DNA of 64,000 nucleotides from Pseudomonas sp. B21-048. GTDB lineage: Bacteria; Pseudomonadota; Gammaproteobacteria; Pseudomonadales; Pseudomonadaceae. Under the pieces are notes generated by a model. The model did no database searches and was not told the DNA's origin. It saw only the letters and a list, made by a program, of their open reading frames with translations. The stretch lies in NCBI RefSeq assembly GCF_024748615.1, contig NZ_CP087168.1, forward strand, positions 3,472,001 to 3,536,000, given 5' to 3'. The translations under genes and the position numbers were made by a program. Shown here piece after piece: positions 7,480-57,687 of the stretch (position 1 is the first letter of the stretch; each line of letters opens with the position of its first letter).

Positions 7480-8866
7480 AGGCTGGCGTTCCTCCAGCAG
7501 CCGCTTGCTGGCGCTCTACAGTTCGCTGTTCGTGGCCTGGAGCGGGATTCTCATGGGGGTCATGTATTACGAGGTGTCCAGCTACCTGGACACCCTGGCC
7601 AAGCATTCGCTGATGCAACGCCAGCATCTGTTTTCCCGCTTCCAGGGCGAGCAACTGGAGGACGCCCTCGCCGCCAGCGTGACCTTCGACGTTCGCGGCA
7701 TCGATGCCTATGGCCTGTTCGATGATCAGCAGCGCTACCTCATCGGCCCCTTGCGCCAGATCCCCCAAGGCCTGCCGCTGGACGGCAAGATTCACATCCT
7801 CAGCGACTGCGTCGACGCCGACGACCCGACCCTGCCCGCCGACAGTTGCGACGCCGTGGCGACCCGGACCCTGGACGGGCGCTGGCTGGTGCTGGTGCGG
7901 GACAACGGTTCGCTGTTTGCCGTGACCCGGATCATCCTGCACGCGCTGCTGTGGGGCGTGTCGCTGACCATTCTGCCCGGCATCGCCGGCTGGCACTTAT
8001 TGAGGCGGCGCCCACTGCGGCGGATCCGGGCGATCCAGGCCAGCGCCGAAGCCATCGTCGCCGGCGACCTGACCCGGCGTCTGCCGCTGTCCAACCGCCG
8101 TGACGAGCTGGACATGCTCGCCGCCATCGTCAACGCCATGCTCGAACGCATCGAGCGCTTGATGAACGAGGTCAAGGGCGTGTGCGACAACATCGCCCAT
8201 GACCTGCGCACACCGTTGACGCGCCTGCGGGCGCAGTTGTACCGGATTCAACAGCAGGCTGACGACGGCTCGACGCTGGCCGTGCAACTGGATTGCGTGC
8301 TCGGCGAGGCCGATACCTTGATGGCGCGTTTTCGCGGTTTGCTGCGAATTTCCGAGCTGGAGGATCGCCAGCGCCGTTCAGGCTTTGTGCAACTGGACCC
8401 GGTGCCGTTGCTGCAAGAGCTGCACGACTTTTATCTGCCACTGGCCGAAGAAGGCGAACTGACCTTTGAACTGCAACTGCCCGAGTCCCTGCCCCAACTC
8501 AACGGCGACCGGGCGTTGCTGTTCGAGGCCTTGGCGAATCTGCTGAGCAACTCGATCAAATTCACACCGCCAGGTGGCGAGGTGATTTTGCGTGGGTTGA
8601 ATGACGCTGGGCATTCGCGAATTGAAGTACTCGACTCCGGCCCTGGCATTGCGCTGACCGAACGTGAGGCGGTGTTTCAGCGTTTCTATCGCGCCGAGGG
8701 CGGTAGCCCGAAAAGCGGTTTCGGGCTGGGGTTGTCGATCGTCGCGGCGATTGTCAGCCTGCATGGGTTTACGCTGGAAGTCGGCAGTAGCGAACTAGGT
8801 GGTGCGCTGTTAGTGCTGGATTGCAGGCAGAACCTGATTCCCGAGGCCTTACCCAAAATATCCTGA
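7457..8866 (+). CDS. Two-component sensor histidine kinase (469 aa)
   Basis: Two membrane spans (about 17-38 and 157-178) flank a periplasmic sensor domain of roughly 120 residues. A HAMP linker (about 180-235) leads to the dimerisation helix with His248 in NIAHDLRTPLTRLRAQ, followed by the ATPase domain with N box (LANLLSNSIKFTPPGG), G1 (VLDSGPGIA) and G2 (GFGLGLSIV). It autophosphorylates and passes the phosphate to the overlapping response regulator. The periplasmic domain has two cysteines (C118, C131) that may form a disulphide. Downstream lies only a half-REP. Confidence 0.92.
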   Translation: MSLLNPSKGWRSSSSRLLALYSSLFVAWSGILMGVMYYEVSSYLDTLAKHSLMQRQHLFSRFQGEQLEDALAASVTFDVRGIDAYGLFDDQQRYLIGPLRQIPQGLPLDGKIHILSDCVDADDPTLPADSCDAVATRTLDGRWLVLVRDNGSLFAVTRIILHALLWGVSLTILPGIAGWHLLRRRPLRRIRAIQASAEAIVAGDLTRRLPLSNRRDELDMLAAIVNAMLERIERLMNEVKGVCDNIAHDLRTPLTRLRAQLYRIQQQADDGSTLAVQLDCVLGEADTLMARFRGLLRISELEDRQRRSGFVQLDPVPLLQELHDFYLPLAEEGELTFELQLPESLPQLNGDRALLFEALANLLSNSIKFTPPGGEVILRGLNDAGHSRIEVLDSGPGIALTEREAVFQRFYRAEGGSPKSGFGLGLSIVAAIVSLHGFTLEVGSSELGGALLVLDCRQNLIPEALPKIS

Positions 8867-8878
8867 ACTGACACATAA

Positions 8879-8900
8879 CCTGTGGGAGCGGGCTTGGGCC
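8879..8900. repeat. Single REP half-site
   Basis: The tract CCTGTGGGAGCGGGCTTGGG matches one arm of the Pseudomonas REP (GTGGGAGCGGGCTTGC); no matching second arm is present nearby. It lies between the convergent kinase and DinB-like genes. Confidence 0.5.
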
Positions 8901-8912
8901 GGGAAACTGGAT

Positions 8913-9419
8913 TCAATACCCTGGAACATCGCGCAGAAACACCGGTAAATCGGTGATCGGCGGCATGGCCGGAATCTCGAAGTACATCTGGACCACCCAA
9001 CCGCGGTGATAACTGGCGTGGTTGATCACATGCAACAGCATCGCGCCAGCGCTCATGACCCCGCTTTCCCCCGAGACAGAGGTGAATTCGATGGGTTTAT
9101 CCAACGAGTCATCAGTCTGCGCCGAGCTCCACCCACAGAACCATTGATCGATCTCCTGTTGCGCCATTCGCAGCTCATTGAGTTCGGTATGGAGCAGGTC
9201 ATGGGACGTTTTGAAATCATGACCTCGGCCCTCCAGATGCGCTTGCCAGATGCAGTCGACCACGTAGATGTGGTTCAAGGTGCCGATGATGTTGTTGAAC
9301 ACCGACACCCGTTTGCGATTGAGCTCTTCCGGGGGCAGCGCCATGAGGCTGTCGAAGAGTCGCTGATCGGCCCAGCGCCTGTAATCGGCGAGCAGGCGGG
9401 CAGTGCGTACATTTATCAT
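8913..9419 (-). CDS. DinB-family protein (168 aa)
   Basis: Start at ATG 9419, downstream of GGGAGACC. The protein begins MINVRTARLLADYRRWADQR, the usual first helix of the DinB/YfiT four-helix bundle. It keeps putative metal-binding histidines in the expected places: NHIYVVDCIW after the second helix and HASYHRGWVVQ in the last. These proteins bind a divalent metal and often act as thiol-S-transferases or remain uncharacterised. The C-terminus TDLPVFLRDVPGY is typical of this subgroup. It stands alone. Confidence 0.82.
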   Translation of the reverse strand: MINVRTARLLADYRRWADQRLFDSLMALPPEELNRKRVSVFNNIIGTLNHIYVVDCIWQAHLEGRGHDFKTSHDLLHTELNELRMAQQEIDQWFCGWSSAQTDDSLDKPIEFTSVSGESGVMSAGAMLLHVINHASYHRGWVVQMYFEIPAMPPITDLPVFLRDVPGY

Positions 9420-42856: not shown

Positions 42857-43513
42857 TCACCAATTTATAATCATCGGCAACCCAGGGCGGAAATCGTGTG
42901 TCTGGCCGCTTGCGCCATAATCGATTTCCAATACGACCAGATGCTCATCACCATGAACAATTTCAAATTCTTTCAGCTGGTTTGCGCAGTTGGCAGGGGT
43001 AGAAAAAGCTTGGCTGTTGAGAGTGGTAACTCGTAAAGATGTAATGTCGCGAAAGCCGTTGGGATGTTCAAACGGCTGCGCTCGCTCAATCAGAGCCTCA
43101 TCCGGCCTCTTGGCAAACGAAAGAAAAAACCACATCGGTTCGGATATAGGCGCATGTCCCACGTCGACTTTCAGGGCAGCGGGTAAGTAAACAGGTCGAT
43201 ACTCCCAGACCGGAAATATTGGCTTCTCGCCTACGGTGGATGGTCTGAAGCAAATTCCAAAGGGCGCGGCCACTCCATCTGCGCACTTGAGGCGGTCAAA
43301 GAGCTGGGTTGGCGCTGTTAACTGACTTTGAGCTTCTAACTCATCGGTGAGATGTAAAAGCTCAATAAAAGAATTTCGGAAGAAGAACCTTCTATTGGCA
43401 GTGCCTTGGCCTGGGTGTGCGTTTGGCGTCCCTTCAGCAAGCCCGAGGGCTTTCAGAGCGTCAGCGCCTCGACCGTCATCATTCACACAAATAAAAATGT
43501 GATCTATTTCCAT
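42857..43513 (-). CDS. VOC/glyoxalase-like domain protein (218 aa)
   Basis: Starts MEIDHIFICVNDDGRGADAL, the opening strand of a vicinal-oxygen-chelate domain with the first metal-ligand His (H5). The following RRFFFRNSFIELLHL supplies the strand with the conserved Glu. It is shorter on recognisable motifs in its second half. ATG 43513 follows GGGGAA. It lies downstream of transposase and tautomerase fragments and outside the terminator of the azomycin operon, so a role in that pathway is not implied. Confidence 0.7.
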   Translation of the reverse strand: MEIDHIFICVNDDGRGADALKALGLAEGTPNAHPGQGTANRRFFFRNSFIELLHLTDELEAQSQLTAPTQLFDRLKCADGVAAPFGICFRPSTVGEKPIFPVWEYRPVYLPAALKVDVGHAPISEPMWFFLSFAKRPDEALIERAQPFEHPNGFRDITSLRVTTLNSQAFSTPANCANQLKEFEIVHGDEHLVVLEIDYGASGQTHDFRPGLPMIINW

Positions 43514-43519
43514 TGTTAA

Positions 43520-43690
43520 TTCCCCAAATACCAGTTCGCCCACTGACCAGGAACCGGTTGGCCATCGGCACTTCGAAGCTTTCTACCAACGCGTCGTGCA
43601 GCCCCTGTGAGAGGGCCTGTAAATACTCGCCAGAATTTCCCGGTGCAATGAAATACGTGCAAATGGCATAACGGTCTACTCCTGAAAAAC
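43520..43690 (-). pseudogene. Tautomerase-family gene fragment
   Basis: The minus strand encodes YAICTYFIAPGNSGEYLQAL then SQGLHDALVESFEVPMANRF, which matches the internal part of 4-oxalocrotonate-tautomerase-like (Tautomerase_2) proteins. No initiating Met-Pro is attached in frame and the C-terminal strand is lost where the VOC gene begins. It is joined directly to a transposase fragment, so a past insertion or recombination truncated it. Confidence 0.55.
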
Positions 43691-43695
43691 CCACT

Positions 43696-43888
43696 GACAG
43701 AGTGATAAGCAGGTCGGCCAGTATCGGCTGGAATTTGCACCTTCAAAACCCAGATTGATCAGGTCGAATTCGTCGACAAAGACGTCGACTACGCGCACCG
43801 GATTGGTATCACTGACGTAGTCGTCGAGGCCCTCGGGAAGTAAGGTGCCTTGGCCTCGATGTTCACCTTGGATAAAGCATATACGCAT
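43696..43888 (-). pseudogene. IS1182-like transposase N-terminal remnant
   Basis: The frame from 43888 gives FIQGEHRGQGTLLPEGLDDY then VSDTNPVRVVDVFVDEFDL, the characteristic start of IS1182-group transposases. A frameshift is needed to continue with the conserved PADTGRPAYH. Homology stops a few residues later. The catalytic domain is absent, so the element is dead. Confidence 0.75.
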
Positions 43889-43998
43889 CACCAACCGCTC
43901 GTTATTTGTGCACTGGGAGATGACAAAATAATCGAAGGACTGTGTTCGGGTCATGACGAATTTGAAGTCATACCGATACCTCCTTGTATGCTGTGCAT

Positions 43999-44030
43999 AA
44001 AAAACGCCGCTTCCTCGGAAGTAAGCGGCG
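43999..44030 (-). terminator. Intrinsic terminator of the roh operon
   Basis: A perfect eight-base stem CGCCGCTT/AAGCGGCG (44005-44012 and 44023-44030). On the minus strand it runs into six T. It lies 34 bases downstream of the last gene of the five-gene operon, marking its end. Confidence 0.85.
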
Positions 44031-44063: not shown

Positions 44064-44300
44064 CTAACTCAAGCGTTTAACCTCAAGGCGCCCACAAGGT
44101 GGGCCGCTCAGTTGCTCACCGGTTTCCAGACTGAACACTGAGAAATGTAATGGGCACGTGATGCTTTTGCGCTGCTCATTGACCACCCCGTGCTCTAACC
44201 ACCCTGCGCGGTGCGGACACGTGTGCGGCACTTCAAAATGTTGATCACCAATTACGACGGCGAATGTGCCTGGGCGATAAAATTCAGATGGCTCGCTCAC
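44064..44300 (-). CDS. rohT: Rieske [2Fe-2S] ferredoxin of the azomycin pathway (78 aa)
   Basis: A small Rieske protein: cluster ligands C28-x-H30 (HTCPHRAGWL) and C49-x2-H52 (ITCPLHFSVF). Start is a GTG at 44300, with AAGGAG seven bases upstream and an in-frame stop immediately before it; the gene overlaps the previous one by 17 bases. In the Streptomyces cattleya azomycin pathway a Rieske ferredoxin accompanies the di-iron N-oxygenase and supplies electrons, which is the role proposed here. The symbol is by analogy; exact letter assignment is from memory. Confidence 0.8.
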   Translation of the reverse strand: MSEPSEFYRPGTFAVVIGDQHFEVPHTCPHRAGWLEHGVVNEQRKSITCPLHFSVFSLETGEQLSGPPCGRLEVKRLS

Positions 44301-45141
44301 TCACTCGCTCCTTGTCGAAGTTCTTCTGGTGCCTTGCCTTCTCGACGGCAGCATCAAAAGCAGCATTGGTGATTTCGCGCCCCATACAGATACCTTCCCA
44401 CGCTTTGACCGGGTTCAGATCTCCCGCCGCATCCATCGCCTTGAGCAAGCGCTGGCCTTCAATAGCGTGGAATACATCGATGTGCACGTGCTCGGAATAA
44501 TAGGTATGGGCCTTGATTTGCAAACGCGAACATATCGACGTATAGCATTCGAAAAAAAACGGCACGACGGTTTCGAAGTAAGTAATGACCCCTGCAAAAT
44601 ACGATGGGTCATCCGCCCGCATCGTCAGCCAGCAGAACATATTGGGAAACGAGAATCCGGCCGAAGCGTTGACGTCGATGTAGAACGCCAGGTCGGTAGG
44701 CATCTCCAGCTCGTTAAGCAGGTCAATGTACAACGTGGTATGAGAACGCTTGAGAGTTCCGGATCCGAATTCGTCAATCATCATCCGCAACATCGGCATC
44801 TGAGCGGCCAGGCTTAGTCGGGGCATTAAGTGATAAAACACCTGTGCCTCGGTCAAGCCATCCAAAGCAAATTCTTGCACCAGGATCTTGAATTCTTCGC
44901 GGGTCATATGATCGCCCACATAGGCCGCGCTGGGCGGCATTACGCTGCGCTCCAAATCCACCAGTTCGGCCAGTTGCTTGCGCAATGCGGCAAGGTCGGT
45001 TGGCGGGTTGGCGGTGCGCGTTTTACTGATAGTCGAATCGATCCAGTCACGCTCGAACTCCAGAATGTGGCTCGGCAATGGCTTGAGCTGCTTGATACAG
45101 GAGCGATTGGCCAAGAACAGATCTTTTTGCAAACCGCTCAT
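44284..45141 (-). CDS. rohS: Haem-oxygenase-like di-iron N-oxygenase, RohS-like (285 aa)
   Basis: An all-helical protein of the haem-oxygenase-like di-iron oxygenase (HDO) type. Candidate iron ligands are E124 (MIDEFGSG), H134, and the cluster H212-E217-D222-H225 in AHTYYSEHVHIDVFHA, the pattern seen in SznF/UndA-like enzymes. Start ATG 45141 overlaps the upstream stop by 4 bases. In the azomycin pathway this enzyme oxidises the amino group of 2-aminoimidazole to the nitro group, forming azomycin with electrons from the Rieske protein. Assignment rests on motifs plus operon context. Confidence 0.82.
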   Translation of the reverse strand: MSGLQKDLFLANRSCIKQLKPLPSHILEFERDWIDSTISKTRTANPPTDLAALRKQLAELVDLERSVMPPSAAYVGDHMTREEFKILVQEFALDGLTEAQVFYHLMPRLSLAAQMPMLRMMIDEFGSGTLKRSHTTLYIDLLNELEMPTDLAFYIDVNASAGFSFPNMFCWLTMRADDPSYFAGVITYFETVVPFFFECYTSICSRLQIKAHTYYSEHVHIDVFHAIEGQRLLKAMDAAGDLNPVKAWEGICMGREITNAAFDAAVEKARHQKNFDKERVSERAI

Positions 45142-45941
45142 GCCATGGCCTCCTCTTCTGCAAACACTCTGTCCGTGGTGATAATGCCTCGCGCCTTGAG
45201 TTCCTTTTTGACCTGAGCGTACCAATCGTCTGCGCCCAGTTCGAAATGCTCATTGAGCGTTTCCACCAGAGTGCCTACCGAAGTTTGTCGTGCACCGATC
45301 GCCAGGCGACAGAGCGCGGGCTCCAGGTTGGCCAACGACACGACATTGCCATCGGACTCCAGATCCTTCGCCAGAAGCATCTCCCAGCCGATGAAGTAAT
45401 CAAGACCTTCATTGCGCAGTTGATTGATCTCGCTTTGAACGCGCGGCTGCGAGGGCGAGTCCTTGATGCCGATGACCCTGGGTAACTGGGCAATGGCAAG
45501 TAAGGTCTCGAAGGTCTTCTCGTTACCGGATAACGCCGACTCGTTGTAGATGAAAATGTCCAGGGAAATGGCGTCATGTACTGCGCGGTAATGCTCAATG
45601 ATATCTTGCTGGCTTGTGCCTGAAGCAAAAGGCGAAGTAAACATGACCGCCTGGGCACCCAATTCCTGGGCCTGCAGTGCATATTCGATCACCTCGGCCG
45701 TCGTAGCACGTTCGATGCCAGCAATCACCGTTTTATCCTGCGCATGGGCCAATGTCAGTTCCAGCATACGCCGCCAGTCCTCCCTCCCCAGCCGCCAGCC
45801 TTCACCGGATGTCAAACAAGGTATGTACCCATCGACAAACGGCCGCGAGCAATGCAATAGCCGGTGCACACTGGCTTCACAGATGCGCGACTGCTCATCG
45901 AGGGGAGAGATCAGAGGCACGAAAATATTCTTACCGGACAT
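45138..45941 (-). CDS. rohR: DapA-fold retro-aldolase, RohR-like (267 aa)
   Basis: A class I aldolase of the dihydrodipicolinate synthase family with Schiff-base Lys160 (VIGIKDSPS) and proton-relay Tyr132 (DIFIYNESA). The N-terminal GxxPCLTSGEG loop replaces the usual TTGE. AGGAGG lies eight bases before ATG 45941. In azomycin formation the aldolase cleaves 4-hydroxy-2-ketoarginine to guanidinoacetaldehyde and pyruvate, consistent with its place between the other Roh homologues. Overlaps of 11 and 4 bases with its neighbours show tight coupling. Confidence 0.83.
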   Translation of the reverse strand: MSGKNIFVPLISPLDEQSRICEASVHRLLHCSRPFVDGYIPCLTSGEGWRLGREDWRRMLELTLAHAQDKTVIAGIERATTAEVIEYALQAQELGAQAVMFTSPFASGTSQQDIIEHYRAVHDAISLDIFIYNESALSGNEKTFETLLAIAQLPRVIGIKDSPSQPRVQSEINQLRNEGLDYFIGWEMLLAKDLESDGNVVSLANLEPALCRLAIGARQTSVGTLVETLNEHFELGADDWYAQVKKELKARGIITTDRVFAEEEAMA

Positions 45942-46449
45942 ACTGGAAGTCCTCCTGCTCAATCGACATTTCACGGGACTGCTCGTACAGACTCTGCAGT
46001 TTCTCGGGAAATGCGGGGCTCGAAATCGATGGCGGGAACGATTGCAGGAAAGGCTTCAACGCGCTCAACTCGCGCAACGAATCATCGTGGGTGAAAAATG
46101 GGCGCTGATGCTCGACCACTTGGGCAGCCAATAATTTTTTCTCGACACTCAGATGGGCCCAGTCAGTCTCCTGGCAAGCGCGCTTCAAGACTTTATTGCA
46201 GTAGCCCTGGCGCTGGATGTTCATGTCTGTATGGAGGACGTCCATGAAGGGGTAGTAGACATCCTGCAAATGGCGACTCTTCTTCCAGATAATGGCATCG
46301 CATATCCCGATCTGGCCGAAACTCATCAGCACCTGACGCGAATAGAATGCGCTGAAAAAACTCAGAGATTTTGCGCGAACATCTGGATCGCTATGGTGCA
46401 TGCCCATGAAAACAGAGGCATCGATAACAGGAATGGCGCCATCAGTCAT
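45931..46449 (-). CDS. rohQ: DUF6190-like protein, candidate RohQ cyclodehydratase (172 aa)
   Basis: Begins MTDGAIPVIDASVFMGMHHS, with an Asp in a PIN-like first strand, and continues SFFSAFYSRQVLMSFGQIGI and CDAIIWKKSRHLQDVYYPFM. I recall such proteins as DUF6190, found in actinobacterial biosynthetic clusters. In the Roh pathway one protein without an obvious enzyme signature converts guanidinoacetaldehyde to 2-aminoimidazole by cyclodehydration, and this gene occupies that slot by elimination. It overlaps rohP by 8 and rohR by 11 bases. Confidence in the function is lower than for its neighbours. Confidence 0.7.
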   Translation of the reverse strand: MTDGAIPVIDASVFMGMHHSDPDVRAKSLSFFSAFYSRQVLMSFGQIGICDAIIWKKSRHLQDVYYPFMDVLHTDMNIQRQGYCNKVLKRACQETDWAHLSVEKKLLAAQVVEHQRPFFTHDDSLRELSALKPFLQSFPPSISSPAFPEKLQSLYEQSREMSIEQEDFQYVR

Positions 46450-47617
46450 GATAGTGCTCCAGTGCAAGGGCGATGGTTTTGACCGCCTGTTCAAACTCTT
46501 CGGGTTTGCGGGCTAATGCCAGACGAATGTACTTCTGCCCCGCCTGCGGCTGACTCCAATAAAAGTACTTGCCTGGCAACACGTACACTTCGAACCCCAT
46601 CAGATACGCCTGCAAATCATCGGCCGTCACACCCTCGCGCAGGATTTCGAACCACGCGACACTGGTCTCGACCATGGGTAACACGTAACTTAAAAAATCA
46701 CCTTCCAAGTGGTGCCTGGCGGCTGTTCGATTGACTTCAAGCACGCAACGGACAGACTCGAAATCGTCTTCGCTGCTGTCTCGAATGTATTGGGTCACCA
46801 CGTTAAGAATGAATGGCGAGACGTTCAGCAGAACACTCGTCACAATGCTGTAGATATCGGCGTTAATGGCCTGACTGGACATGATCGTTGCGCACTTGGT
46901 GTCTTGCAGCGGCCAGGTTTTGCCGGTGTCTTCCATGATTATGTACTGGGTGCCGATGTCGTCCAGGATCGCATAAGCGTCGAATCGGCTGCCCCCTGCG
47001 ATCTTGAAAAACGCAGCAAAGCAAAAGTCCAGAATAAGCAGCTTGCCGTGGTCCTTGCAGTAACGCGCCACCTCCACAAAAGTATCGGCGCCTTTAGCAA
47101 ACATGCTCGAACCGGTCGGGTTGTTGGGATCCACCAGAAAAATCGCATCGACATTAGCTGCCGCCGTTTGGAGTTTTGCATAGACGTTTGCTGAAGACTG
47201 AAAAAGGCTCTCGTCCAGCGCAATCAATGGCACTTCCATGTGCTTGAGCAAGTCATGCAGGTTATCGAAGCACGGCTCGATCAGCCCCACGCTCATGTTG
47301 CGTTTGCGCAGATAGGTTGCGGTGATGTGCATCGCAATTGAAGCTGCATAGACCAGGTAAATTTCATCATGTCGCTTGAGCGCGTGCTCTTGACCATGAA
47401 AGGAGAAAAACGCCTGAATGAACTCTTGCTCACTCTGGTACTGACTACGGCTTTGGGCGCGATACCAGAGTTCGGGTAGGCGCTCGACGATCTGTCGCTG
47501 AGTGATGCTCTGGTCCTGGTGCGTATGGGCATCGGCCAGATTGAAGCGTGTTTTCAGGGCAGAAATTTCATGCTGGGTAATATCTTCTTTAACGTCGTGA
47601 CGGGCTACAACACTCAT
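46442..47617 (-). CDS. rohP: PLP-dependent L-arginine oxidase, RohP/MppP-like (391 aa)
   Basis: A fold-type I PLP protein that closely matches the MppP/RohP arginine oxidases: VGLIEPCFDN (110-119), VDPNNPTG (162-169), YCKDHGKLLILDFCFA (186-201), the PLP lysine K233 in MEDTGKTWPLQDTKCA, TSVLLNVSPF and VYVLPGKYFYWS. These enzymes use oxygen to convert L-Arg to 4-hydroxy-2-ketoarginine, the first step toward azomycin or enduracididine. It heads the operon. AGGA lies upstream of ATG 47617 and lux-box-like dyads lie 100-160 bases further up. Confidence 0.9.
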   Translation of the reverse strand: MSVVARHDVKEDITQHEISALKTRFNLADAHTHQDQSITQRQIVERLPELWYRAQSRSQYQSEQEFIQAFFSFHGQEHALKRHDEIYLVYAASIAMHITATYLRKRNMSVGLIEPCFDNLHDLLKHMEVPLIALDESLFQSSANVYAKLQTAAANVDAIFLVDPNNPTGSSMFAKGADTFVEVARYCKDHGKLLILDFCFAAFFKIAGGSRFDAYAILDDIGTQYIIMEDTGKTWPLQDTKCATIMSSQAINADIYSIVTSVLLNVSPFILNVVTQYIRDSSEDDFESVRCVLEVNRTAARHHLEGDFLSYVLPMVETSVAWFEILREGVTADDLQAYLMGFEVYVLPGKYFYWSQPQAGQKYIRLALARKPEEFEQAVKTIALALEHYHD

Positions 47618-47721: not shown

Positions 47722-47741
47722 AACTGTACCTGAGTGCAGTT
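47722..47741. promoter_or_regulatory. Lux-box-like dyad 1
   Basis: AACTGTACCTGAGTGCAGTT is a 20-bp imperfect dyad (seven of ten positions pair), similar in size and CTG...CAG layout to LuxR-type operators. Its centre is about 114 bases upstream of rohP and 130 bases upstream of luxI. Confidence 0.6.
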
Positions 47742-47756: not shown

Positions 47757-47776
47757 ACCTGTCTTTAGGTACAGTT
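47757..47776. promoter_or_regulatory. Lux-box-like dyad 2
   Basis: ACCTGTCTTTAGGTACAGTT, a second 20-bp dyad with CTGT/ACAG half-sites. Its right half (AGGTACAGTT) is the exact reverse complement of the left half of dyad 1, which supports a common binding protein. Its centre is about 94 bases upstream of luxI. Confidence 0.55.
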
Positions 47777-47860: not shown

Positions 47861-48490
47861 ATGGACAAGGTCAGCTTTTACAGCGTCGATTATTCAGATG
47901 CCTCACCAGAACTAATGGGCAATCTATTCTGCTTAAGAAAAGAAATATTCGCCGACCGGTTGGACTGGCGCGTCATCGTTAACGAAGGCAGGGAAATTGA
48001 CGAGTATGACAACGCATTCTCAACGTATCTGGTAGGAATGTATGCAGGCATACCCTTGGCCAGCCTGCGCCTGATCAATACGCTGAACCCCTATATGGCA
48101 GAGGGACCCTTTCGCGGCTTTTTCAACTACGTGTTACCCAAAAACCAGCTGATCGCTGAGTCCAGCCGCTTTTTCGTGGACAAGACCCGCTCACGGGCTT
48201 TTGCGCTGACTCGAGTGCCGATCACTGAGATGTTGCTTCTGGCGATGCACAGCCATGCCGCTCGCCTGGGTCTGGACTCGATCATAACGGTGGTCAGCCA
48301 AGCCATGTCACGCATCGTCCTCAGGGCAGGATGGCATTACGAGATATTGGATACAGGCGAAGCTTCACCAGGAGAGAAAGTACTGTTGCTGAATATGCCC
48401 ATTCGTCCTGAAAACGATTGGCGGCTTAAAGAAGTGATCAATTCAAAGAACAATCATCCTTTGCACAAGTTGCTCGAAATCAACTGTTGA
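47861..48490 (+). CDS. luxI: LuxI-family acyl-homoserine-lactone synthase (209 aa)
   Basis: All invariant LuxI-family residues are present: R26, F30 and W36 (LRKEIFADRLDWRV), D47 and D50 (GREIDEYDNAFS), R70, F84, E100 and R103 (IAESSRFFVD). The start ATG 47861 follows GGAAG. The enzyme makes an N-acyl-homoserine lactone from S-adenosylmethionine and an acyl-ACP; acyl length cannot be read from sequence. It is divergent from the azomycin operon and convergent with luxR, 19 bases between stops. The symbol is generic. Confidence 0.9.
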   Translation: MDKVSFYSVDYSDASPELMGNLFCLRKEIFADRLDWRVIVNEGREIDEYDNAFSTYLVGMYAGIPLASLRLINTLNPYMAEGPFRGFFNYVLPKNQLIAESSRFFVDKTRSRAFALTRVPITEMLLLAMHSHAARLGLDSIITVVSQAMSRIVLRAGWHYEILDTGEASPGEKVLLLNMPIRPENDWRLKEVINSKNNHPLHKLLEINC

Positions 48491-49470: not shown

Positions 49471-50109
49471 TCAGTCAGCAGGGCCATCGCGGGATTCCGC
49501 GAGCCCGGCTTGCACGGCAGGACGAGATTCAATTACCGCCAGCCAGCGCAATACATTCGTAAAAGGTGTGATATCCAAGTCAAGCTCCTCATAGGTGCGC
49601 AGCCAGGGAAACGCCGCGATATCGGCGATGGAATACTGGTCGGATGCCAGGTAAGTGTGCTCGCTCAGTTGCTTGTCCACCACGCCATAGATCCGCAGCG
49701 CCTCTTTGCGGTAACGCGCGATAGCTTCCTCATTGCGCGTCGTGGTGCCGTGCAAGAACCACCACAACTGGCCCAGCATCGGACCGATGGCCCCGACCTG
49801 GAAGAAAAGCCATTGTTGAACCACAAGTTGTTCGGCAGATGAACCAGGCTGCAGACGATCGAATTTCTGCGACAGGTGGCTCAGGATGGCAGCAGATTCG
49901 AAAACCGAAATGCCCGCCTGATGATCGACGATGGCAGGGATTTTTCCGTTGGGGTTTATCCGTAGAAACTCCGGTGAGTGCTGCCGCCCCCTGGACAAGT
50001 TGAACTTCACCTTTTCACAGTCAATTGCAGCTTCTTTGAGGAATATACTGATTTTTTGCCCGTTCGGTGTATCGGCCGTATACAACGTGATGGGGTAAGG
50101 CGCGCTCAT
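49471..50109 (-). CDS. Glutathione S-transferase, YfcG/YghU-like (212 aa)
   Basis: An N-terminal thioredoxin-like domain (ITLYTADTPNGQKISIFLKE, NPNGKIPAIVDHQAGISVFE with the Glu-Ser glutathione contact) is followed by the helical C-terminal domain (ADIAAFPWLRTYEELDLDIT). TPNGQK resembles the Nu-class (YfcG/YghU) start, which acts as a disulphide-bond reductase. ATG 50109 follows GGAG. Being next to the nitroimidazole cluster it might defend against reactive products, but that is speculative. Confidence 0.87.
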   Translation of the reverse strand: MSAPYPITLYTADTPNGQKISIFLKEAAIDCEKVKFNLSRGRQHSPEFLRINPNGKIPAIVDHQAGISVFESAAILSHLSQKFDRLQPGSSAEQLVVQQWLFFQVGAIGPMLGQLWWFLHGTTTRNEEAIARYRKEALRIYGVVDKQLSEHTYLASDQYSIADIAAFPWLRTYEELDLDITPFTNVLRWLAVIESRPAVQAGLAESRDGPAD

Positions 50110-50207
50110 TAGGGAACTCCAATACAGGGTAATGTCATTGCATTTGCAATCATATTGAGGCGTGCAGTATGGTGCAAGTACGACGGAACGCACGGAGATT
50201 TCAGGAT

Positions 50208-51311
50208 ATGATCGGCTTTTCCAGCTTCAATAAGACACCAGAGACCACTCTTGCCGCTCAGGCCTGCATCGATAAAATACGAAACCTGGCACAGCAATAC
50301 ACTGCTGGTTTTTCCTCGCCGCTCTACACCATGATTGATATCGCCAATCGACTGGAAAGGGATCCTGGAACGGCCAGACATATCTGGGTCATCCGGTCCA
50401 ACAACCAATCTCAAATCGATAGTTGTCACCCACGTATCAACGCCTGGCCACTGCGTTTTAGCCCTGCAGCCCGTGCCAGCGAAAAACCGCTGTTGTACCT
50501 GACCAGTTCTGCGACATCGGCCGAACTTTGCGCACTTTCGAACGAATCCGCCCACAGAGGCATTCTGTGCAATGACATAGAAACCCTGCCCTCTCGTTGG
50601 CCGAAGGGCGCCCACCCTTGGGTCTCGATCTGGCTGGCCGCCAATCCGCAATGCCTGCCCTTCGACCCCGCCAGCGGTGCCGAAGCGCACGCCATTGCGC
50701 TTGCTGCGTTGCAAAGCTTGTATGTGGAAGGCAATGACGGTTTCTATTACATGGCGCTTCACGATGAACCCAATGATTTCATCGCCCCTATCAGCCAACT
50801 CAGTGCGAGCCAGGCACTTAAGGGCATGTACAAGCTCAACGAGATAGATACAGATGCCGGGCAACCTCGGATTCGCTTGTTAGGCGCGGGGCTGGCCTTG
50901 CAGTCAGTGGTCTCAGCAGCGCAGATATTGCGTGATGACTGGGGTGTCGAAAGTGAACTCTGGAGCTGCCCCAGCTACACTCGCCTGGCCCGGGATGCAG
51001 ACAAGGCACAACGCTGGAACCGGATGCATCCGCATATGCCGCGGCGGTCTTCACATTTGCTCGACTGCCTGAGCGCCGATGATTGCCCGGTGGTCGCGGT
51101 GACCGGTTATGCCCAGCATGTCGCCGATCAGATCGGTGCGCATATCCAGTCACGATTCGTGGCGCTCGGCGCTGACTCAACCGAAACACCGCCGGGCAAA
51201 TCGTTGGATAAACGCTGGATTGTGGTCCTCGCTCTGCGCGCCTTGGCTGAGGAAGGTGCTATCGCGCAGACGCGCGTCGAACAGGCCATCGGCCGCTATC
51301 TGCTGCAATGA
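50208..51311 (+). CDS. Truncated pyruvate dehydrogenase E1-like protein, C-terminal domains only (367 aa)
   Basis: From about residue 165 the protein parallels the C-terminal part of AceE: ALQSLYVEGNDGFYYMALHD, ALKGMYKLNE, LLGAGLALQSVVSAAQILRD then DWGVESELWSCPSYTRLARD, and the end SRFVALGADSTETP...LDKRWIVVLALRALA. The N-terminal thiamine-diphosphate domain (GDG...N motif) is absent, so it cannot be a catalytic E1 alone. Residues 1-160 are weakly similar to the middle of E1, if at all. It is intact and encoded beside a full aceE paralogue. ATG 50208 is chosen over 50169 because of AGGA nearby. It may be a regulatory or scaffolding subunit; function unknown. Confidence 0.75.
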   Translation: MIGFSSFNKTPETTLAAQACIDKIRNLAQQYTAGFSSPLYTMIDIANRLERDPGTARHIWVIRSNNQSQIDSCHPRINAWPLRFSPAARASEKPLLYLTSSATSAELCALSNESAHRGILCNDIETLPSRWPKGAHPWVSIWLAANPQCLPFDPASGAEAHAIALAALQSLYVEGNDGFYYMALHDEPNDFIAPISQLSASQALKGMYKLNEIDTDAGQPRIRLLGAGLALQSVVSAAQILRDDWGVESELWSCPSYTRLARDADKAQRWNRMHPHMPRRSSHLLDCLSADDCPVVAVTGYAQHVADQIGAHIQSRFVALGADSTETPPGKSLDKRWIVVLALRALAEEGAIAQTRVEQAIGRYLLQ

Positions 51312-51844: not shown

Positions 51845-51858
51845 GTTGCAGTTGCAAC
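51845..51858. promoter_or_regulatory. Probable MarR operator 2
   Basis: GTTGCAGTTGCAAC has perfect inverted halves GTTGCA/TGCAAC around a two-base centre. It is 41 bases from operator 1, about four helical turns, and 90 bases before the aceE start. Confidence 0.6.
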
Positions 51859-51947
51859 CACATATATTATTCAAGGTTGGCGTCGACCCACGCCCCTTAG
51901 CTAAGCACCAAACGACTCGGTGCTGCTGCACTGTCCAGGAGACGACG

Positions 51948-54617
51948 ATGGCACAACAACCCCTGTTTTTCGACGAGGATCCACAAGAAACTCGCGAATG
52001 GCTCGAATCCATTGAATCGGTGGCGAGCGTCGAAGGGCGCCCTCGCGCCCACTATCTGATCGATCAGATGCTGGATTTCGATGCCAACCGCCATGGTAAT
52101 TTTTACGGGCGCGTCACCACGCCCTACGTCAACACCATTGCGGTCGACCGTCAGCAGCCTTACCCCGGCGACCTGACGATAGAGCACCGGATCAATGCTT
52201 ATATCCGTTGGAACGCTTTGGCCATGGTGCTGCGCGCCGGCAAACATTCGAACGTGGGCGGGCACATCGCTTCCTATGCCTCGGCGGCCATTCTGTACGA
52301 CGTCGGCTTCGAGCATTTCTTCCGTGGGCGCACCGAGCAGTTTGGTGGCGACATGGTGTATATCCAGGGCCACTCTTCGCCGGGCATCTACGGGCGCGCT
52401 TATCTGGAGGGACGACTGAGTGAAGATCAGTTGGATAACTTCCGCCGTGAGACCGACCGCGACGGTGTCTCGTCCTATCCGCACCCAAGGCTCATGCCGG
52501 ACTTCTGGCAGTTTCCGACGGTGTCCATGGGACTCGGACCGATCACCGCCGCGTATCAGGCCAGATTCATGCGCTACCTCGAAGACCGTGGCCTGAAAGA
52601 ACATCAAGGGCGCAAAGTGTGGGCGTTTCTCGGTGACGGCGAAATGGACCAGCCGGAATCGCTGGCGGCAATTTCCCTGGCAGGTCGGGAGAAGCTCGAC
52701 AATATTATTTTTGTCGTCAACTGCAACCTCCAGCGCCTGGACGGACCGGTGCGCGGCAACAGCAAGGTGATCCAGGAATTTGAAAGCCTGTACCGGGCGG
52801 CCGGCTGGAACGTCATCAAAGTGATCTGGGGCAGCGGTTGGGATGCCTTGCTGGAAAAGGACAAAAGCGGCCTGTTGCGTCAGCGCATGATGGAATGCGT
52901 GGACGGCGACTATCAAAACTACAAATCCCAGAACGGCGCTTATGTACGTGAGCATTTTTTTGGCAAATACCCTGAGCTGCTGGAACTGGTCAGCGACCTG
53001 AGCGACGACGAAATCTGGAAGCTCTCACGCGGTGGCCATGACCCGGAAAAAGTCTACAATGCCTACGCCGCCGCCATGCGCCACAGCGGCGGACCAACAG
53101 TCATTTTGGCAAAAACCGTCAAAGGCTTCGGCATGGGCGAAGCAGGCGAAGGCCAGAACATCAACCATCAACTCAAGAAGATGGGTGAGGACGCTGTCAA
53201 AGCGTTCCGTGATCGTTTCGGGCTGGACCTCACCGACGATCAATTGGGCGATATGCCCTACCTCAAACCGGCGGCGGACAGTGTCGAGGCCCTTTATCTA
53301 CAAGCCAGGCGCACCCAACTGGGCGGTTACGTGCCTGCGCGCTTCAGTGCGGTGGAGCCGTTGCAGATCCCGCCATTGTCGGCCCTGGACAGCCAGCTCA
53401 AAGGTACCGGCGAGCGCGGAATTTCCACCACTATGGCGTTTGTGCGCATCCTCGGCACTTTGCTCAAGGACCCGAGCATCGGCAAGCTGATTGTGCCCAT
53501 TGTCCCGGACGAATCACGCACCTTCGGCATGGAGAGCCTGTTCCGCCAGATCGGGATCCACTCCCACGTCGGCCAGTTGTATACACCTCAGGACGCCGGC
53601 CAACTGAGTTATTACAAGGAGGCACGGGATGGCCAGATCATGCAGGAGGGGCTGAACGAGTCCGGCGGAATTTCTTCCTGGATCGCAGCGAGTACTTCGT
53701 ACAGTACACACGGCGTGATGACGGTACCCTTCTACATCTTTTATTCGATGTTCGGCTTCCAGCGCGTCGGCGATCTGGCCTGGGCGGCGGGCGATGCACG
53801 CGCCCGAGGTTTTCTGCTGGGCGCCACGTCCGGCAGGACCACGCTGATGGGCGAAGGCCTGCAGCATGACGATGGTCACAGCCATGTGCTGTCCTCTACC
53901 GTACCGTGCTGTGTGTCCTACGACCCGACGTTCGCCTATGAACTGGCCGTGATCATCCAGGATGGCATGCGGCGTATGTATGTCGAAAACGAAGACATTT
54001 ATTACTACATCACACTGCTGAACGAAAACTACGCCCATCCGCCCATGCCCGAAGGTGTCGAGCAGGACATTCTCAAAGGTATGTATCGGCTCTCAACATC
54101 GGCGCAGCCAATCGAAGGCAAGCACGTGCAATTGATGGGTTGTGGTTCGATCCTGCAAGAAGTCATCGCCGCCGCGCAGTTGCTGGAGCAGGACTTCGGT
54201 GTAAGCAGCGAAGTGTGGAGCGTCACCAGCCTGACCGAACTGCGTCGCGATGGACAGGATGCCGAACGCTGGAATTTGCTGCATCCCCAGCAGCCACCCC
54301 GTATCGGTCACGTTGAAAGTTGCCTGCAAGATAAACAGGGTCCGGTGGTGGTAACGACTGATTACATGAAGATATTCGCCGACCAGATCCGCCCGTTCGT
54401 GCCCAAGCGGCGCTTTGTGGCATTAGGCACCGACGGTTTCGGTCAATCGGATACCCGGGAATCGTTGCGCAGGTTTTTCGAAGTGGATCGTCACTTCATT
54501 GCGTTGGCGGCCTTGAAGGCGCTGGCCGATGACGGAGGTGTGCCTAGGGAAAAAGTAGCTGAGGCGATTGCACTTTATGGGATTGACCCGGAGAAGCAGA
54601 ACCCAGCGAAAGTTTGA
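51948..54617 (+). CDS. aceE: Pyruvate dehydrogenase E1 component, homodimeric type (889 aa)
   Basis: A full-length AceE: the thiamine-diphosphate motif G229-D-G-E-M-D (AFLGDGEMDQPESL) running to NCN258-260, the inner loop VKGFGMGEAGEGQNINHQLK, GISSWIAASTSYSTHGVMTV, GATSGRTTLMGEGLQHDDGH and the C-terminal RRFVALGTDGFGQSDTRESL. It decarboxylates pyruvate and acetylates the lipoyl domains of E2. No aceF or lpd gene follows; an intrinsic terminator does, so this is a solitary paralogue that must borrow E2/E3 encoded elsewhere. ATG 51948 follows AGGAGA. Probably under MarR control. Confidence 0.92.
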   Translation: MAQQPLFFDEDPQETREWLESIESVASVEGRPRAHYLIDQMLDFDANRHGNFYGRVTTPYVNTIAVDRQQPYPGDLTIEHRINAYIRWNALAMVLRAGKHSNVGGHIASYASAAILYDVGFEHFFRGRTEQFGGDMVYIQGHSSPGIYGRAYLEGRLSEDQLDNFRRETDRDGVSSYPHPRLMPDFWQFPTVSMGLGPITAAYQARFMRYLEDRGLKEHQGRKVWAFLGDGEMDQPESLAAISLAGREKLDNIIFVVNCNLQRLDGPVRGNSKVIQEFESLYRAAGWNVIKVIWGSGWDALLEKDKSGLLRQRMMECVDGDYQNYKSQNGAYVREHFFGKYPELLELVSDLSDDEIWKLSRGGHDPEKVYNAYAAAMRHSGGPTVILAKTVKGFGMGEAGEGQNINHQLKKMGEDAVKAFRDRFGLDLTDDQLGDMPYLKPAADSVEALYLQARRTQLGGYVPARFSAVEPLQIPPLSALDSQLKGTGERGISTTMAFVRILGTLLKDPSIGKLIVPIVPDESRTFGMESLFRQIGIHSHVGQLYTPQDAGQLSYYKEARDGQIMQEGLNESGGISSWIAASTSYSTHGVMTVPFYIFYSMFGFQRVGDLAWAAGDARARGFLLGATSGRTTLMGEGLQHDDGHSHVLSSTVPCCVSYDPTFAYELAVIIQDGMRRMYVENEDIYYYITLLNENYAHPPMPEGVEQDILKGMYRLSTSAQPIEGKHVQLMGCGSILQEVIAAAQLLEQDFGVSSEVWSVTSLTELRRDGQDAERWNLLHPQQPPRIGHVESCLQDKQGPVVVTTDYMKIFADQIRPFVPKRRFVALGTDGFGQSDTRESLRRFFEVDRHFIALAALKALADDGGVPREKVAEAIALYGIDPEKQNPAKV

Positions 54618-54997: not shown

Positions 54998-56593
54998 TCA
55001 CGCTACTGCTCGTAAAGCGCGCACTTTCTCGTATCGCGAGAATCCGATCTTGATGCCGACTAGCATGGGGGCGGCGATTACAAAAAGCAGGGCCACGGCG
55101 ATGAACGCTGTGTCGAAGGCAATCACCGTGGACTGAATTGTCACTGACCGGCCCAGAAGGCTCATCGCTGCCCGGCTAGCGGCCGTTGTATCCATTCCTT
55201 TCGCGCTCAGCATGGCAGTCGTGGTCGTCATTCGCTCGATGACCGCGGCCCCGCCTGGGGTGACGTTGGCGCCGAGGACCACGGCATTGGTGACGACGTT
55301 ATGGTCGATCAGTGTCTGGAGCCCTGCGACTCCAATGAGGCCACCTAGTTGGCGACCCGTATTGAAAAGGCCTATTCCACTGGCGAGGTTTCGGCTGTTG
55401 AGGTGGCTGAAGGCGATCAGCGTGATCGATAAAAACAGAAAGCCAAGCCCCAACCCGCGCAACAGGATAGCCGCCATCATGTCGTCCGCGCCGCTTTCGC
55501 TGGTAGAACCGGACAGCATCCACATCGCCACCATGATCATCAGGATGCCAAAGGGCACGGTGGCGAACGGCGCAACGCGGCGGGCCTGCATGAGCCAAGC
55601 CGATATGAGCAGCGCGCCGACAAAAAACGCGCCGCTGGGCAACAGGAGCCGACCGGCATCGGTAGGCGTGAACCCGAGGACCGACAGGGCGAACGCCGGA
55701 ATCAGGAACGCGCTGCCGAACAAGGCGGCGCCGGCAACAAAACTGACGATAAAGGCGAAAGAAAAATCGCTCGATTTGAACAGGGTGAAGTCCAGCAGCC
55801 CCTGCCCTTTGGCCAACACTTGTTGACCGAAAAATGCCAGCAGAGCGGCTGCGCCGATCACGGTTAGCCACAGGATGTGAGGCTCCTCGAACCAGTCCCA
55901 TCGGCTGCCTTGGCTGAGAACGTAGGTGAAACAGAACAAGGTGGCAGAGATCAGCGAGAAGCCGATCCAGTCAAACGGACGATGCCGGACCTTGACGGGC
56001 ATTGGGCCGTCCGCGATCAGCACAAGTCCGGTAGCCGCCAAAGCAATCGGGACAACGCTGAAGAAAATCCATGTCCAGGATTGGCTATCGATCAACCACC
56101 CTTGAAGCGCCGGGGCGAGCGTCGCGGGCGCGACAACGGAGCCCATGGCAAACAGGGCCTGGAGGATGGGCTGACGGGACCGCGGATAAGCGCGAAATAT
56201 CATCGCCTGCCCCCCGACCAGCAGCGTGCCGCCGGCGAAGCCCTGAATCACCCGAAGTGCAACCAGCAGATCCAGCCGAGCGGTAATGGCGGCAATGCCA
56301 CACGCCAGGCCCATGACCAGGGTCGAGCTGATGATCACATGACGCGCAGCGAAACGGTTTATCAGCCAAGGAGCGGTCATGAACCCGATCAGCTTGAGCG
56401 CAATGTAGCCAATATCCAACCAGGCAAACTCATCTGGCGTTGCATAGGTGTCGCCGATGATGTCGCTGCGTCCGAGCGACAGAACGGTGCTGGCAATCGC
56501 TTCCGTCAGCGTGGCAAGCACAATGCCGGCAATGAGCAGGACACCGGTCGTAGCGCTGGCGTTGCTCCGCGTGGCACTGGCAACCGTGTTCAT
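54998..56593 (-). CDS. MFS multidrug exporter, EmrB-like (531 aa)
   Basis: About fourteen transmembrane spans, with LINRFAARHVIISSTLVMGL (motif A region) and VIQGFAGGTLLVGGQAMIFR (span 4 motif) of the DHA2/EmrB group. Its ATG overlaps the stop of the membrane-fusion gene by 4 bases, so exporter and adaptor are made together. With the HlyD-family partner and an outer-membrane TolC-like channel it would pump drugs out of the cell. Substrate unknown. Confidence 0.87.
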   Translation of the reverse strand: MNTVASATRSNASATTGVLLIAGIVLATLTEAIASTVLSLGRSDIIGDTYATPDEFAWLDIGYIALKLIGFMTAPWLINRFAARHVIISSTLVMGLACGIAAITARLDLLVALRVIQGFAGGTLLVGGQAMIFRAYPRSRQPILQALFAMGSVVAPATLAPALQGWLIDSQSWTWIFFSVVPIALAATGLVLIADGPMPVKVRHRPFDWIGFSLISATLFCFTYVLSQGSRWDWFEEPHILWLTVIGAAALLAFFGQQVLAKGQGLLDFTLFKSSDFSFAFIVSFVAGAALFGSAFLIPAFALSVLGFTPTDAGRLLLPSGAFFVGALLISAWLMQARRVAPFATVPFGILMIMVAMWMLSGSTSESGADDMMAAILLRGLGLGFLFLSITLIAFSHLNSRNLASGIGLFNTGRQLGGLIGVAGLQTLIDHNVVTNAVVLGANVTPGGAAVIERMTTTTAMLSAKGMDTTAASRAAMSLLGRSVTIQSTVIAFDTAFIAVALLFVIAAPMLVGIKIGFSRYEKVRALRAVA

Positions 56594-57687
56594 GAGCCGC
56601 CCCCTTGCGCCACCTCGACCCGCGCGGACAAGCCAGGCACGATGCGGCCCGGCAACGGGTTGTGGGCAAGCCGGATTTTTACCGGAACCCGCTGCACGAC
56701 ACGCACAAAGTTCCCTGTTGCATTGTCTGTGGGGAGCAAGCTGAACGCCGACCCACTGCCCGGTGCAAAACTGTCGACCATGCCTTCAAGTGCCTCGTTC
56801 GGGTAGCCGTCGACCGTAATGCGCACACGCTGACCGGGGCGGATATGTTCGAGCTGGGTCTCCTTGAAATTCGCCACGACCCACACATCATTGACCGGCA
56901 CGATATCGAGCAAGGCCCCACCCGGCGTAACGAACCGGCCGACGCGGACCTGACGGTTACCGACAACGCCATCAACAGGCGCGTGTACCACGGTGCTGTC
57001 GAGATCGATCTGGGCCAGATCGCGCGCGGCCTGTGCCTGCGCCACAGCAGCAACGGCAGCTTCTCGCTGGGCCACAAGGACGGTGATGCGTTGCTGTTGA
57101 GCCTCGACCGTTGCCGAAGCCGCCGATACCGTCGCCTCGGCTCTGGAGCGTGCCGTGCCGGTTTCATCGACGAGGGCCTGGCTGACCGCGTTGCTGACGA
57201 TAAGTTTTTGGCTGCGATCGTGGGTCTTGGTCGCCAGATTCATCTCGGCGGAGGCCGAGCGGCGCTGGGCTTCGGCCTGTCGAATCAGGCTACGCTGAAG
57301 CTGGGTTTCGGCATCGACATGGGTCAGGCGCGCCTGGGCAGCGCTGACATTGGCCACTGCTTGAGCAAGTCGCGCTCGATAGTCCCTATCGTCAATCCGG
57401 AACAGGACATCCCCCGCACGGACGGTCTGGTTGTCCTCGACCTCTACCGCCGTGACATAGCCGGCAACTTTGGCGGCGAGCGAGGTGAGGTCGCCGCGCA
57501 CATAAGCGTTATCGGTGGAGGTCGCACCACTCGAAAACGCCATGGCCCATCCGCCAGCCAAGACCGCCACGGCGCCGATGCACAGCAGGATGCCAATCGT
57601 CTTTTTCTTGCTTTGCCGCGCCACCACGACAGGGATCTCATCGCTTGCGCTGGTGGCAATGGCGGCCTTGTCCTGAAGCGAGTTCAT
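56590..57687 (-). CDS. HlyD/EmrA-family membrane fusion protein (365 aa)
   Basis: One N-terminal span (about 31-50: IGILLCIGAVAVLAGGWAMA), a biotinyl-lipoyl-like half (VAGYVTAVEVEDNQTVRAGD), a long Ala-rich coiled-coil hairpin (about 100-215), the second lipoyl half (VVHAPVDGVVGNRQVRVGRF) and a beta-barrel (FKETQLEHIRPGQRVRITVD). This is the periplasmic adaptor of an EmrAB-type pump, cotranscribed with the exporter through a 4-base overlap. Confidence 0.9.
   Translation of the reverse strand: MNSLQDKAAIATSASDEIPVVVARQSKKKTIGILLCIGAVAVLAGGWAMAFSSGATSTDNAYVRGDLTSLAAKVAGYVTAVEVEDNQTVRAGDVLFRIDDRDYRARLAQAVANVSAAQARLTHVDAETQLQRSLIRQAEAQRRSASAEMNLATKTHDRSQKLIVSNAVSQALVDETGTARSRAEATVSAASATVEAQQQRITVLVAQREAAVAAVAQAQAARDLAQIDLDSTVVHAPVDGVVGNRQVRVGRFVTPGGALLDIVPVNDVWVVANFKETQLEHIRPGQRVRITVDGYPNEALEGMVDSFAPGSGSAFSLLPTDNATGNFVRVVQRVPVKIRLAHNPLPGRIVPGLSARVEVAQGGGS

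What the first reader, a model, noticed from the sequence alone, without database searches (positions are those of the whole stretch)
44064..47617. Azomycin (2-nitroimidazole) biosynthetic operon in a Pseudomonas
Five overlapping genes correspond one-to-one to the route from L-arginine to azomycin worked out in Streptomyces cattleya: RohP-like PLP oxidase (VGLIEPCFDN, DTGKTWPLQD, YVLPGKYFYWS), a DUF6190-like protein, a DapA-fold aldolase (K160, Y132), a haem-oxygenase-like di-iron protein and a Rieske ferredoxin. Azomycin has been reported as a Pseudomonas product, and related clusters are known in proteobacteria, so the set is recognised rather than wholly new. The compact 3.5-kb layout with 4-17 bp overlaps and its own terminator makes it an unusually clean copy.
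Basis: partly seen in the sequence, partly recalled or inferred. Interest (0 to 1): 0.88.

Follow-up and report, generated by a model that had tools for sequence, protein, structure and literature searches.

The report
Quorum-linked azomycin antibiotic operon
This Pseudomonas carries a complete five-gene set for making the nitro-antibiotic azomycin from arginine, a set already known in the genus; beside it lie quorum-sensing genes with matching DNA sites and a spare copy of a central metabolic enzyme that might protect the producer.

Summary
Window 47617..44064 (-) is an intact rohPQRST operon. RohQ and RohS closely match PDB entries of those names, and the five proteins are 79-92% identical to those of L110, taken to be Pseudomonas DF41, in which deleting rohPQRST abolishes azomycin (PMC12713392). 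Product and expression in this strain are inferred.

luxI is divergent from rohP, with two lux boxes between them (12/12 and 11/12), the two best in the window. A box of at least 10/12 lies upstream of rohP in 20 of 20 loci with adjacent LuxR and in 0 of 9 without. Print says Pseudomonas roh always adjoins luxRI; of 20 roh-positive species genomes here, 10 have luxI beside roh, 8 only luxR, 2 neither.

A second pyruvate-dehydrogenase E1 gene (aceE2) and a half-E1 protein lie within 10 kb of roh in 16 of those 20, and an aceE lies near roh in one Streptomycetaceae clade. I propose self-protection, with low confidence. A DF41 relative carries a deletion scar here, so loss explains part of the patchy distribution.

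The parts
46442..47617 (-). rohP: PLP- and O2-dependent arginine oxidase
   Evidence: Best PDB relative 6c3a, 414 bits, over MppP 202; catalytic Lys233 kept in 84 of 85 aligned rows
45931..46449 (-). rohQ: cyclodehydratase (DUF6190)
   Evidence: DUF6190 203 bits; PDB RohQ 9c5w 308 bits
45138..45941 (-). rohR: retro-aldolase of the DapA fold
   Evidence: DHDPS family; Tyr132 and Lys160 in 86 of 86 rows
44284..45141 (-). rohS: haem-oxygenase-like di-iron N-oxygenase
   Evidence: PbrRohS 9pfx 576 bits, SznF 35 bits; E98, E124, H134, H218, D222, H225 in 86 of 86 rows; that these are the iron ligands is recalled from SznF
44064..44300 (-). rohT: Rieske [2Fe-2S] ferredoxin, probable electron donor to RohS
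   Evidence: Rieske 31.5 bits; C28, H30, C49, H52 in 86 of 86 rows
43999..44030 (-). hairpin plus T run after rohT, probable terminator
   Evidence: Sequence; stem in the predicted fold, z -1.08 for 81 nt
47722..47741 (.). lux box on the rohP side
   Evidence: 11 of 12 consensus positions
47757..47776 (.). lux box on the luxI side
   Evidence: 12 of 12; exact pattern once in 64 kb, 0 in 100 shuffles
47861..48490 (+). luxI: acyl-homoserine-lactone synthase, divergent from rohP
   Evidence: Autoind_synth 140 bits
48510..49238 (-). luxR: acyl-homoserine-lactone receptor, convergent with luxI
   Evidence: Autoind_bind and GerE; six signal-binding residues kept
49471..50193 (-). glutathione-S-transferase-like gene, conserved neighbour; true start probably about 28 codons inside this frame
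   Evidence: GST domains; beside luxR in 12 of 21 related Pseudomonas loci
50169..51311 (+). half-E1 protein: middle and C-terminal part of pyruvate dehydrogenase E1, function unknown
   Evidence: Transketolase_C_1; model pLDDT 81.5; TM 0.70 to E. coli E1
51846..54617 (+). aceE2: second pyruvate dehydrogenase E1
   Evidence: TIGR00759 1418 bits over cut-off 860; 60% identical to the other aceE of this genome; aligns end to end with E. coli E1

Best explanation
An intact azomycin (2-nitroimidazole) operon switched on by quorum sensing. RohP oxidises L-arginine with O2, RohR splits the product by a retro-aldol step, RohQ closes the ring to 2-aminoimidazole, and RohS oxidises the amino group to the nitro group, with RohT as the likely electron donor. 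The divergent luxI makes an acyl-homoserine lactone; LuxR with that signal binds the two lux boxes in the 240-bp gap and drives luxI one way and rohPQRST the other. Shown here: the genes, their conserved residues, the boxes and their conservation. From print: the in vitro chemistry of roh enzymes, and the need for rohPQRST in DF41. Inferred: enzyme activity, LuxR binding and azomycin production in this strain, and RohT as donor.
For: Families and nearest solved relatives. Five proteins 79-92% identical to those of L110, taken to be DF41, whose rohPQRST deletion makes no azomycin (PMC12713392). L110 RohS is 285 of 285 identical to PbrRohS. 84 of 87 loci keep all five genes and the key residues are kept. 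Lux boxes: the two best of the window; at least 10/12 upstream of rohP in 20 of 20 LuxR-linked loci, 0 of 9 others, 35 of 920 random 600-bp stretches. LuxR keeps six signal-binding residues.
Against: No product, transcript or binding data for this strain. Two P. syringae strains with the operon made no detectable azomycin in LB. In 6 of the 11 luxI-linked loci the best match near the rohP-side box is weak (9 or less), DF41 itself at 9. The loci are related and the box score was fixed after seeing the window. RohP stays under the NCBIfam MppP cut-off.
Confidence: 0.78

Rival explanations
1. The operon is intact but silent or expressed only under special conditions, so that this strain makes no azomycin in ordinary culture.
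For: P. syringae DC3000 and B728a carry the genes but made none in LB, and DF41 made it on pea only when the oomycete was present (PMC12713392).
Against: The window is closer to DF41, which produced in LB, and has two strong lux boxes.
Confidence: 0.25
2. The enzymes make another arginine-derived compound, for example 2-aminoimidazole or a hydroxylated arginine, and not azomycin.
For: RohP is related to MppP of the enduracididine pathway, and RohS is distantly related to SznF.
Against: RohQ and RohS match proteins named for the azomycin pathway far better, all five genes are present in the order P-Q-R-S-T, and the same operon makes azomycin in DF41.
Confidence: 0.04
3. aceE2 and the half-E1 gene are mere neighbours: roh sits beside them because of shared ancestry at one chromosomal site, with no link in function.
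For: The half-E1 gene also occurs in 47 of 378 roh-negative genomes, and 13 of 20 loci fetched share another conserved neighbourhood. No lux box of 10/12 or more lies near the pair. Several roh-positive Streptomyces hold two aceE genes with none near roh.
Against: Half-E1 is present in 18 of 20 roh-positive genomes against 47 of 378 (Fisher 1.1e-13, genomes not independent). In L008 and L115 it lies on the other side of roh. An aceE also lies near roh in 5 loci of one Streptomycetaceae clade.
Confidence: 0.7

Closest known systems
rohPQRST of Pseudomonas sp. DF41 (taken to be L110, from contig length and locus-tag prefix)
   Same: Same five genes and order, adjacent luxI/luxR, GST, half-E1 and aceE2; proteins 79-92% identical.
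   Different: Rohp-side lux box scores 9 there and 11 here; another species.
rohPQRST of Streptomyces eurocidicus (L040, L075)
   Same: All five genes; L075 has an aceE about 2 kb from rohP.
   Different: Proteins 34-57% identical; no LuxI or LuxR match in the locus.
rohPQRST of the P. syringae complex (L005, L006, L007)
   Same: Five genes with luxI and luxR; half-E1 and aceE2 beside luxR in L006 and L007 (L005 ends beside luxR).
   Different: Proteins 62-81% identical; rohP-side box weak (7-8 of 12); two P. syringae strains made no azomycin in LB (PMC12713392).
MppP (enduracididine) and SznF (streptozotocin)
   Same: Same enzyme kinds as RohP and RohS.
   Different: Far lower scores: MppP 202 against 414 bits; SznF 35 against 576 bits.

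Membership tests
azomycin (rohPQRST) gene cluster | PLP enzyme of the RohP/MppP kind, not an ordinary aminotransferase | tested here: met
   6c3a 414 bits, MppP 202 bits; MppP model first in NCBIfam, but 162 bits is under its cut-off of 450
azomycin (rohPQRST) gene cluster | RohQ cyclodehydratase (DUF6190) | tested here: met
azomycin (rohPQRST) gene cluster | RohR aldolase with Schiff-base lysine | tested here: met
   DHDPS family; K160 and Y132 in 86 of 86 rows
azomycin (rohPQRST) gene cluster | RohS di-iron N-oxygenase and RohT Rieske protein in the same operon | tested here: met
azomycin (rohPQRST) gene cluster | Makes 2-nitroimidazole | not testable with these tools
   Needs LC-MS
LuxR-controlled operon | luxI/luxR pair and a lux box upstream of the first gene | tested here: met
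LuxR-controlled operon | Expression depends on LuxR and its signal | not testable with these tools
   No expression data
duplicated-target self-resistance gene (aceE2) | Second copy of a housekeeping enzyme beside the biosynthetic genes | tested here: met
   aceE2 60% identical to the other aceE of the genome; linked in 16 of 20 roh-positive Pseudomonas genomes
duplicated-target self-resistance gene (aceE2) | Found only with the cluster | tested here: not met
   Half-E1 occurs without roh in 47 of 378 genomes
duplicated-target self-resistance gene (aceE2) | Housekeeping enzyme sensitive, copy resistant | not testable with these tools
   Needs enzyme assays

The most novel reading that the evidence does not exclude
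The azomycin locus is larger than rohPQRST. A second pyruvate-dehydrogenase E1 (aceE2), with a half-E1 partner in Pseudomonas, shields the producer, either by standing in for a pyruvate dehydrogenase that azomycin or its hydroxylamino and nitroso intermediates inactivate, or by trapping those intermediates on hydroxyethyl-thiamine diphosphate. The link arose twice, in Pseudomonas and in a Streptomycetaceae clade. One Pseudomonas clade of the cluster is under lux-box control throughout, and a subclade that lost luxI may make the antibiotic in answer to its neighbours' signals.
Probability: 0.2. Interest if true: 0.62.

Novelty: new member of a known kind. Interest (0 to 1): 0.38.

Why it matters
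As an azomycin operon it fits what was published in 2025. What is added is testable: a pair of lux boxes that turns possible quorum control into a named binding site; a class of roh loci with luxR and no luxI, which the published survey did not report; a deletion scar that shows loss at a fixed site; and an aceE copy near roh in two phyla. If aceE2 protects the producer, it would point to pyruvate oxidation as a target of a nitroimidazole in aerobes, which bears on how azomycin harms oomycetes and plants.

Tried and rejected
A GST remnant in L128, L130 and L131 was rejected: the 21-23 matching residues lie before the likely true GST start, next to the half-E1 gene. An IS1182 transposase remnant at 43676-43954 was rejected: 20.5 bits against a cut-off of 270. 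The idea that a weak rohP-side lux box explains silence in P. syringae is not supported as it stands: the three P. syringae-complex loci score 7-8, but so do L003 and L108 (8 each), and the producer DF41 scores 9. Paper searches for a known AhlR target operon, by a recalled name and by locus tags, found nothing. Searches for azomycin with quorum, for azomycin with self-resistance and pyruvate dehydrogenase, and for aceE with luxI listed no paper whose title or abstract start ties aceE or a lux box to azomycin (open-access library, listings only).

L009 and L011 (rohP match in two frames) and L033, L073, L078 (genes missing) were left out of the tree; rohT was not used in it. The search for related loci kept 80 of 113 relatives. 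In one search, partial half-E1 matches in G358, G280 and G305 and the 38% match in G080 were not counted as present; two of the 65 counted (G178, G099) hold one stop.
Full report
OBSERVATION. Five overlapping genes on the minus strand from 47617 to 44064 are real and intact. Their families are those claimed. Nearest solved relatives: RohP to 6c3a (414 bits; recalled as S. cattleya RohP) ahead of MppP (202 bits); RohQ to PDB RohQ (308 bits); RohS to PbrRohS (576 bits); RohR to DapA/NanA-type enzymes; RohT to one Rieske ferredoxin (27.7 bits). A genome scan with a RohQ alignment gave 113 relatives, of which 80 were kept. With 7 further Pseudomonas loci, 84 of 87 hold all five genes. RohP Lys233 is kept in 84 of 85 rows, RohR Lys160 and Tyr132, the six RohS residues and the four RohT residues in 86 of 86.

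WHAT IT IS. The set is the azomycin operon. Its five Roh proteins are 79-92% identical to the window's, and its RohS is 285 of 285 identical to PbrRohS. The route arginine to 2-aminoimidazole (RohP, RohR, RohQ) and on to azomycin (RohS) is as told in passages of PMC10724926. The 2019 paper that worked it out was not available to me. RohT as electron donor is inference.

REGULATION. Divergent from rohP lies luxI (start 47861), convergent with luxR. In the 240-bp gap are two 20-bp lux boxes, 47722-47741 and 47757-47776. On 12 consensus positions they score 11 and 12; the next best places in 64 kb score 10 (three of them). The stricter pattern matches once in the window and in none of 100 shuffles. 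Over 29 loci, the best box within 600 bp upstream of rohP reaches at least 10 in 20 of 20 loci with an adjacent LuxR and in 0 of 9 without; random 600-bp stretches of the LuxR-linked loci reach it in 35 of 920. The loci are related and the score was fixed after seeing the window, so independence is overstated. The rohP-side box on its own is weaker: it scores 10 or more in 5 of the 11 luxI-linked loci and in 9 of the 9 LuxR-only loci. The 2025 paper calls quorum regulation possible; in its main text 'lux' occurs twice, both as LuxRI.

TWO REGULATORY CLASSES. The paper states that roh adjoins luxRI in all Pseudomonas cases. In a sample of 398 Pseudomonas genomes, 20 have RohQ. Of the 8, 6 have no LuxI-family match in the genome and 2 have one elsewhere. 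All 20 LuxR sequences aligned, LuxR-only ones included, keep six signal-binding residues (that these bind the signal is recalled). In a tree of four concatenated Roh proteins (83 loci, 1110 columns) all 18 LuxR-linked loci form one clade (support 1.0), the 7 LuxR-only ones form a clade (1.0) nested among the luxI-linked ones, and the two Pseudomonas loci without LuxR (L015, L119) fall outside it, printed beside Bordetella, Achromobacter and Marinobacter loci. The simplest reading is one loss of luxI and a separate entry of roh into the genus.

NEIGHBOURS. Beyond luxR lie a GST-like gene, a 380-aa protein and aceE2. The 380-aa protein is modelled (mean pLDDT 81.5) as the middle and C-terminal part of pyruvate dehydrogenase E1 (TM 0.70 to E. 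coli E1). aceE2 passes the NCBIfam aceE cut-off, is 60% identical to the genome's other aceE and aligns end to end with E. coli E1. By my reading of the match list, the half-E1 protein is present at full length (47% identity or more) in 65 of 398 genomes: 18 of 20 with roh, 47 of 378 without (Fisher 1.1e-13; related genomes). It lies on the same contig within 10 kb of roh in 16 of 20, each time with aceE2; of the other four, one has it on another contig (the roh contig ends beside luxR), one has it unlinked, one has only a 38% homologue beside roh, and one has none. In L008 and L115 it lies on the rohT side. Of 20 loci fetched around half-E1 genes away from roh, 13 share another conserved neighbourhood with nitrilase-like, AraC, flavin-oxidoreductase and PLP-enzyme genes. 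Among 67 further roh loci (L015-L081), an aceE lies within the locus in 5, four Streptomyces and one Wenjunlia, one clade (support 1.0), including one of the two roh loci of S. eurocidicus. Those five genomes hold 2-3 full-length aceE genes, but so do three of four other roh-positive actinobacteria checked, with none near roh, so chance is not excluded. Self-protection is my inference. That nitroso aromatics react with thiamine-diphosphate enzymes and that nitroimidazoles interfere with thiamine are recalled and were not looked up.

LOSS AT A FIXED SITE. L129 is 97.7% identical to L110 over 2,488 bp up to the GST gene, then jumps to a 156-bp piece of rohT (92%) and on to the far flank; no luxI, luxR or rohP-S match better than chance is left: a deletion scar. 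L128 is collinear with L002 on both sides (93.0% over 4,315 bp; 85.7% over 992 bp and 88.6% over 4,993 bp) and lacks the roughly 6-kb GST-lux-roh block. So part of the patchy distribution is loss, besides the several gains argued in print. The roh genes (53.1% G+C) and lux genes (49.6%) lie below the window mean (58.0%).

VERDICT. The interest rests on the regulatory and aceE findings, which are computational and in part speculative.

Noticed in passing
L033 (rohQ 8001-8450, rohR 8462-9220) and L078 (rohQ 8001-8456): Two Woesearchaeota contigs encode a RohQ relative, one with a RohR relative beside it, and no RohP, RohS or RohT in the stretch held. What they make is unclear.
   Followed up: partly
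L073, 8001-9812: A Nostoc calcicola locus has rohQ, rohS and rohT relatives and no rohP or rohR in the stretch held.
   Followed up: partly
L009 6856-7990 and L011 6850-7990: rohP matches in two frames in these two Pseudomonas loci, at different points, so the gene may be broken or the sequence wrong.
   Followed up: no
L040 and L075; L037 and L071; L034 and L059: Three Streptomyces genomes, S. eurocidicus among them, each hold two separate roh loci.
   Followed up: no
G000:C1:2605907-2606356: The window's genome has a second LuxI-family gene far from roh (76 bits).
   Followed up: no
window 54998-57687: An EmrAB-like efflux pair follows aceE2; the EmrB part passes its NCBIfam cut-off. Whether it exports azomycin is unknown.
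   Followed up: no
window 42857-43543: The glyoxalase-like gene after roh occurs in 13 of 398 Pseudomonas genomes; only one other roh-positive genome has it, on another contig, so it is probably not part of the cluster.
   Followed up: yes
L129 8716-9107: Side-by-side pieces of GST and rohT mark a deletion of the lux-roh block in a close relative of DF41.
   Followed up: yes
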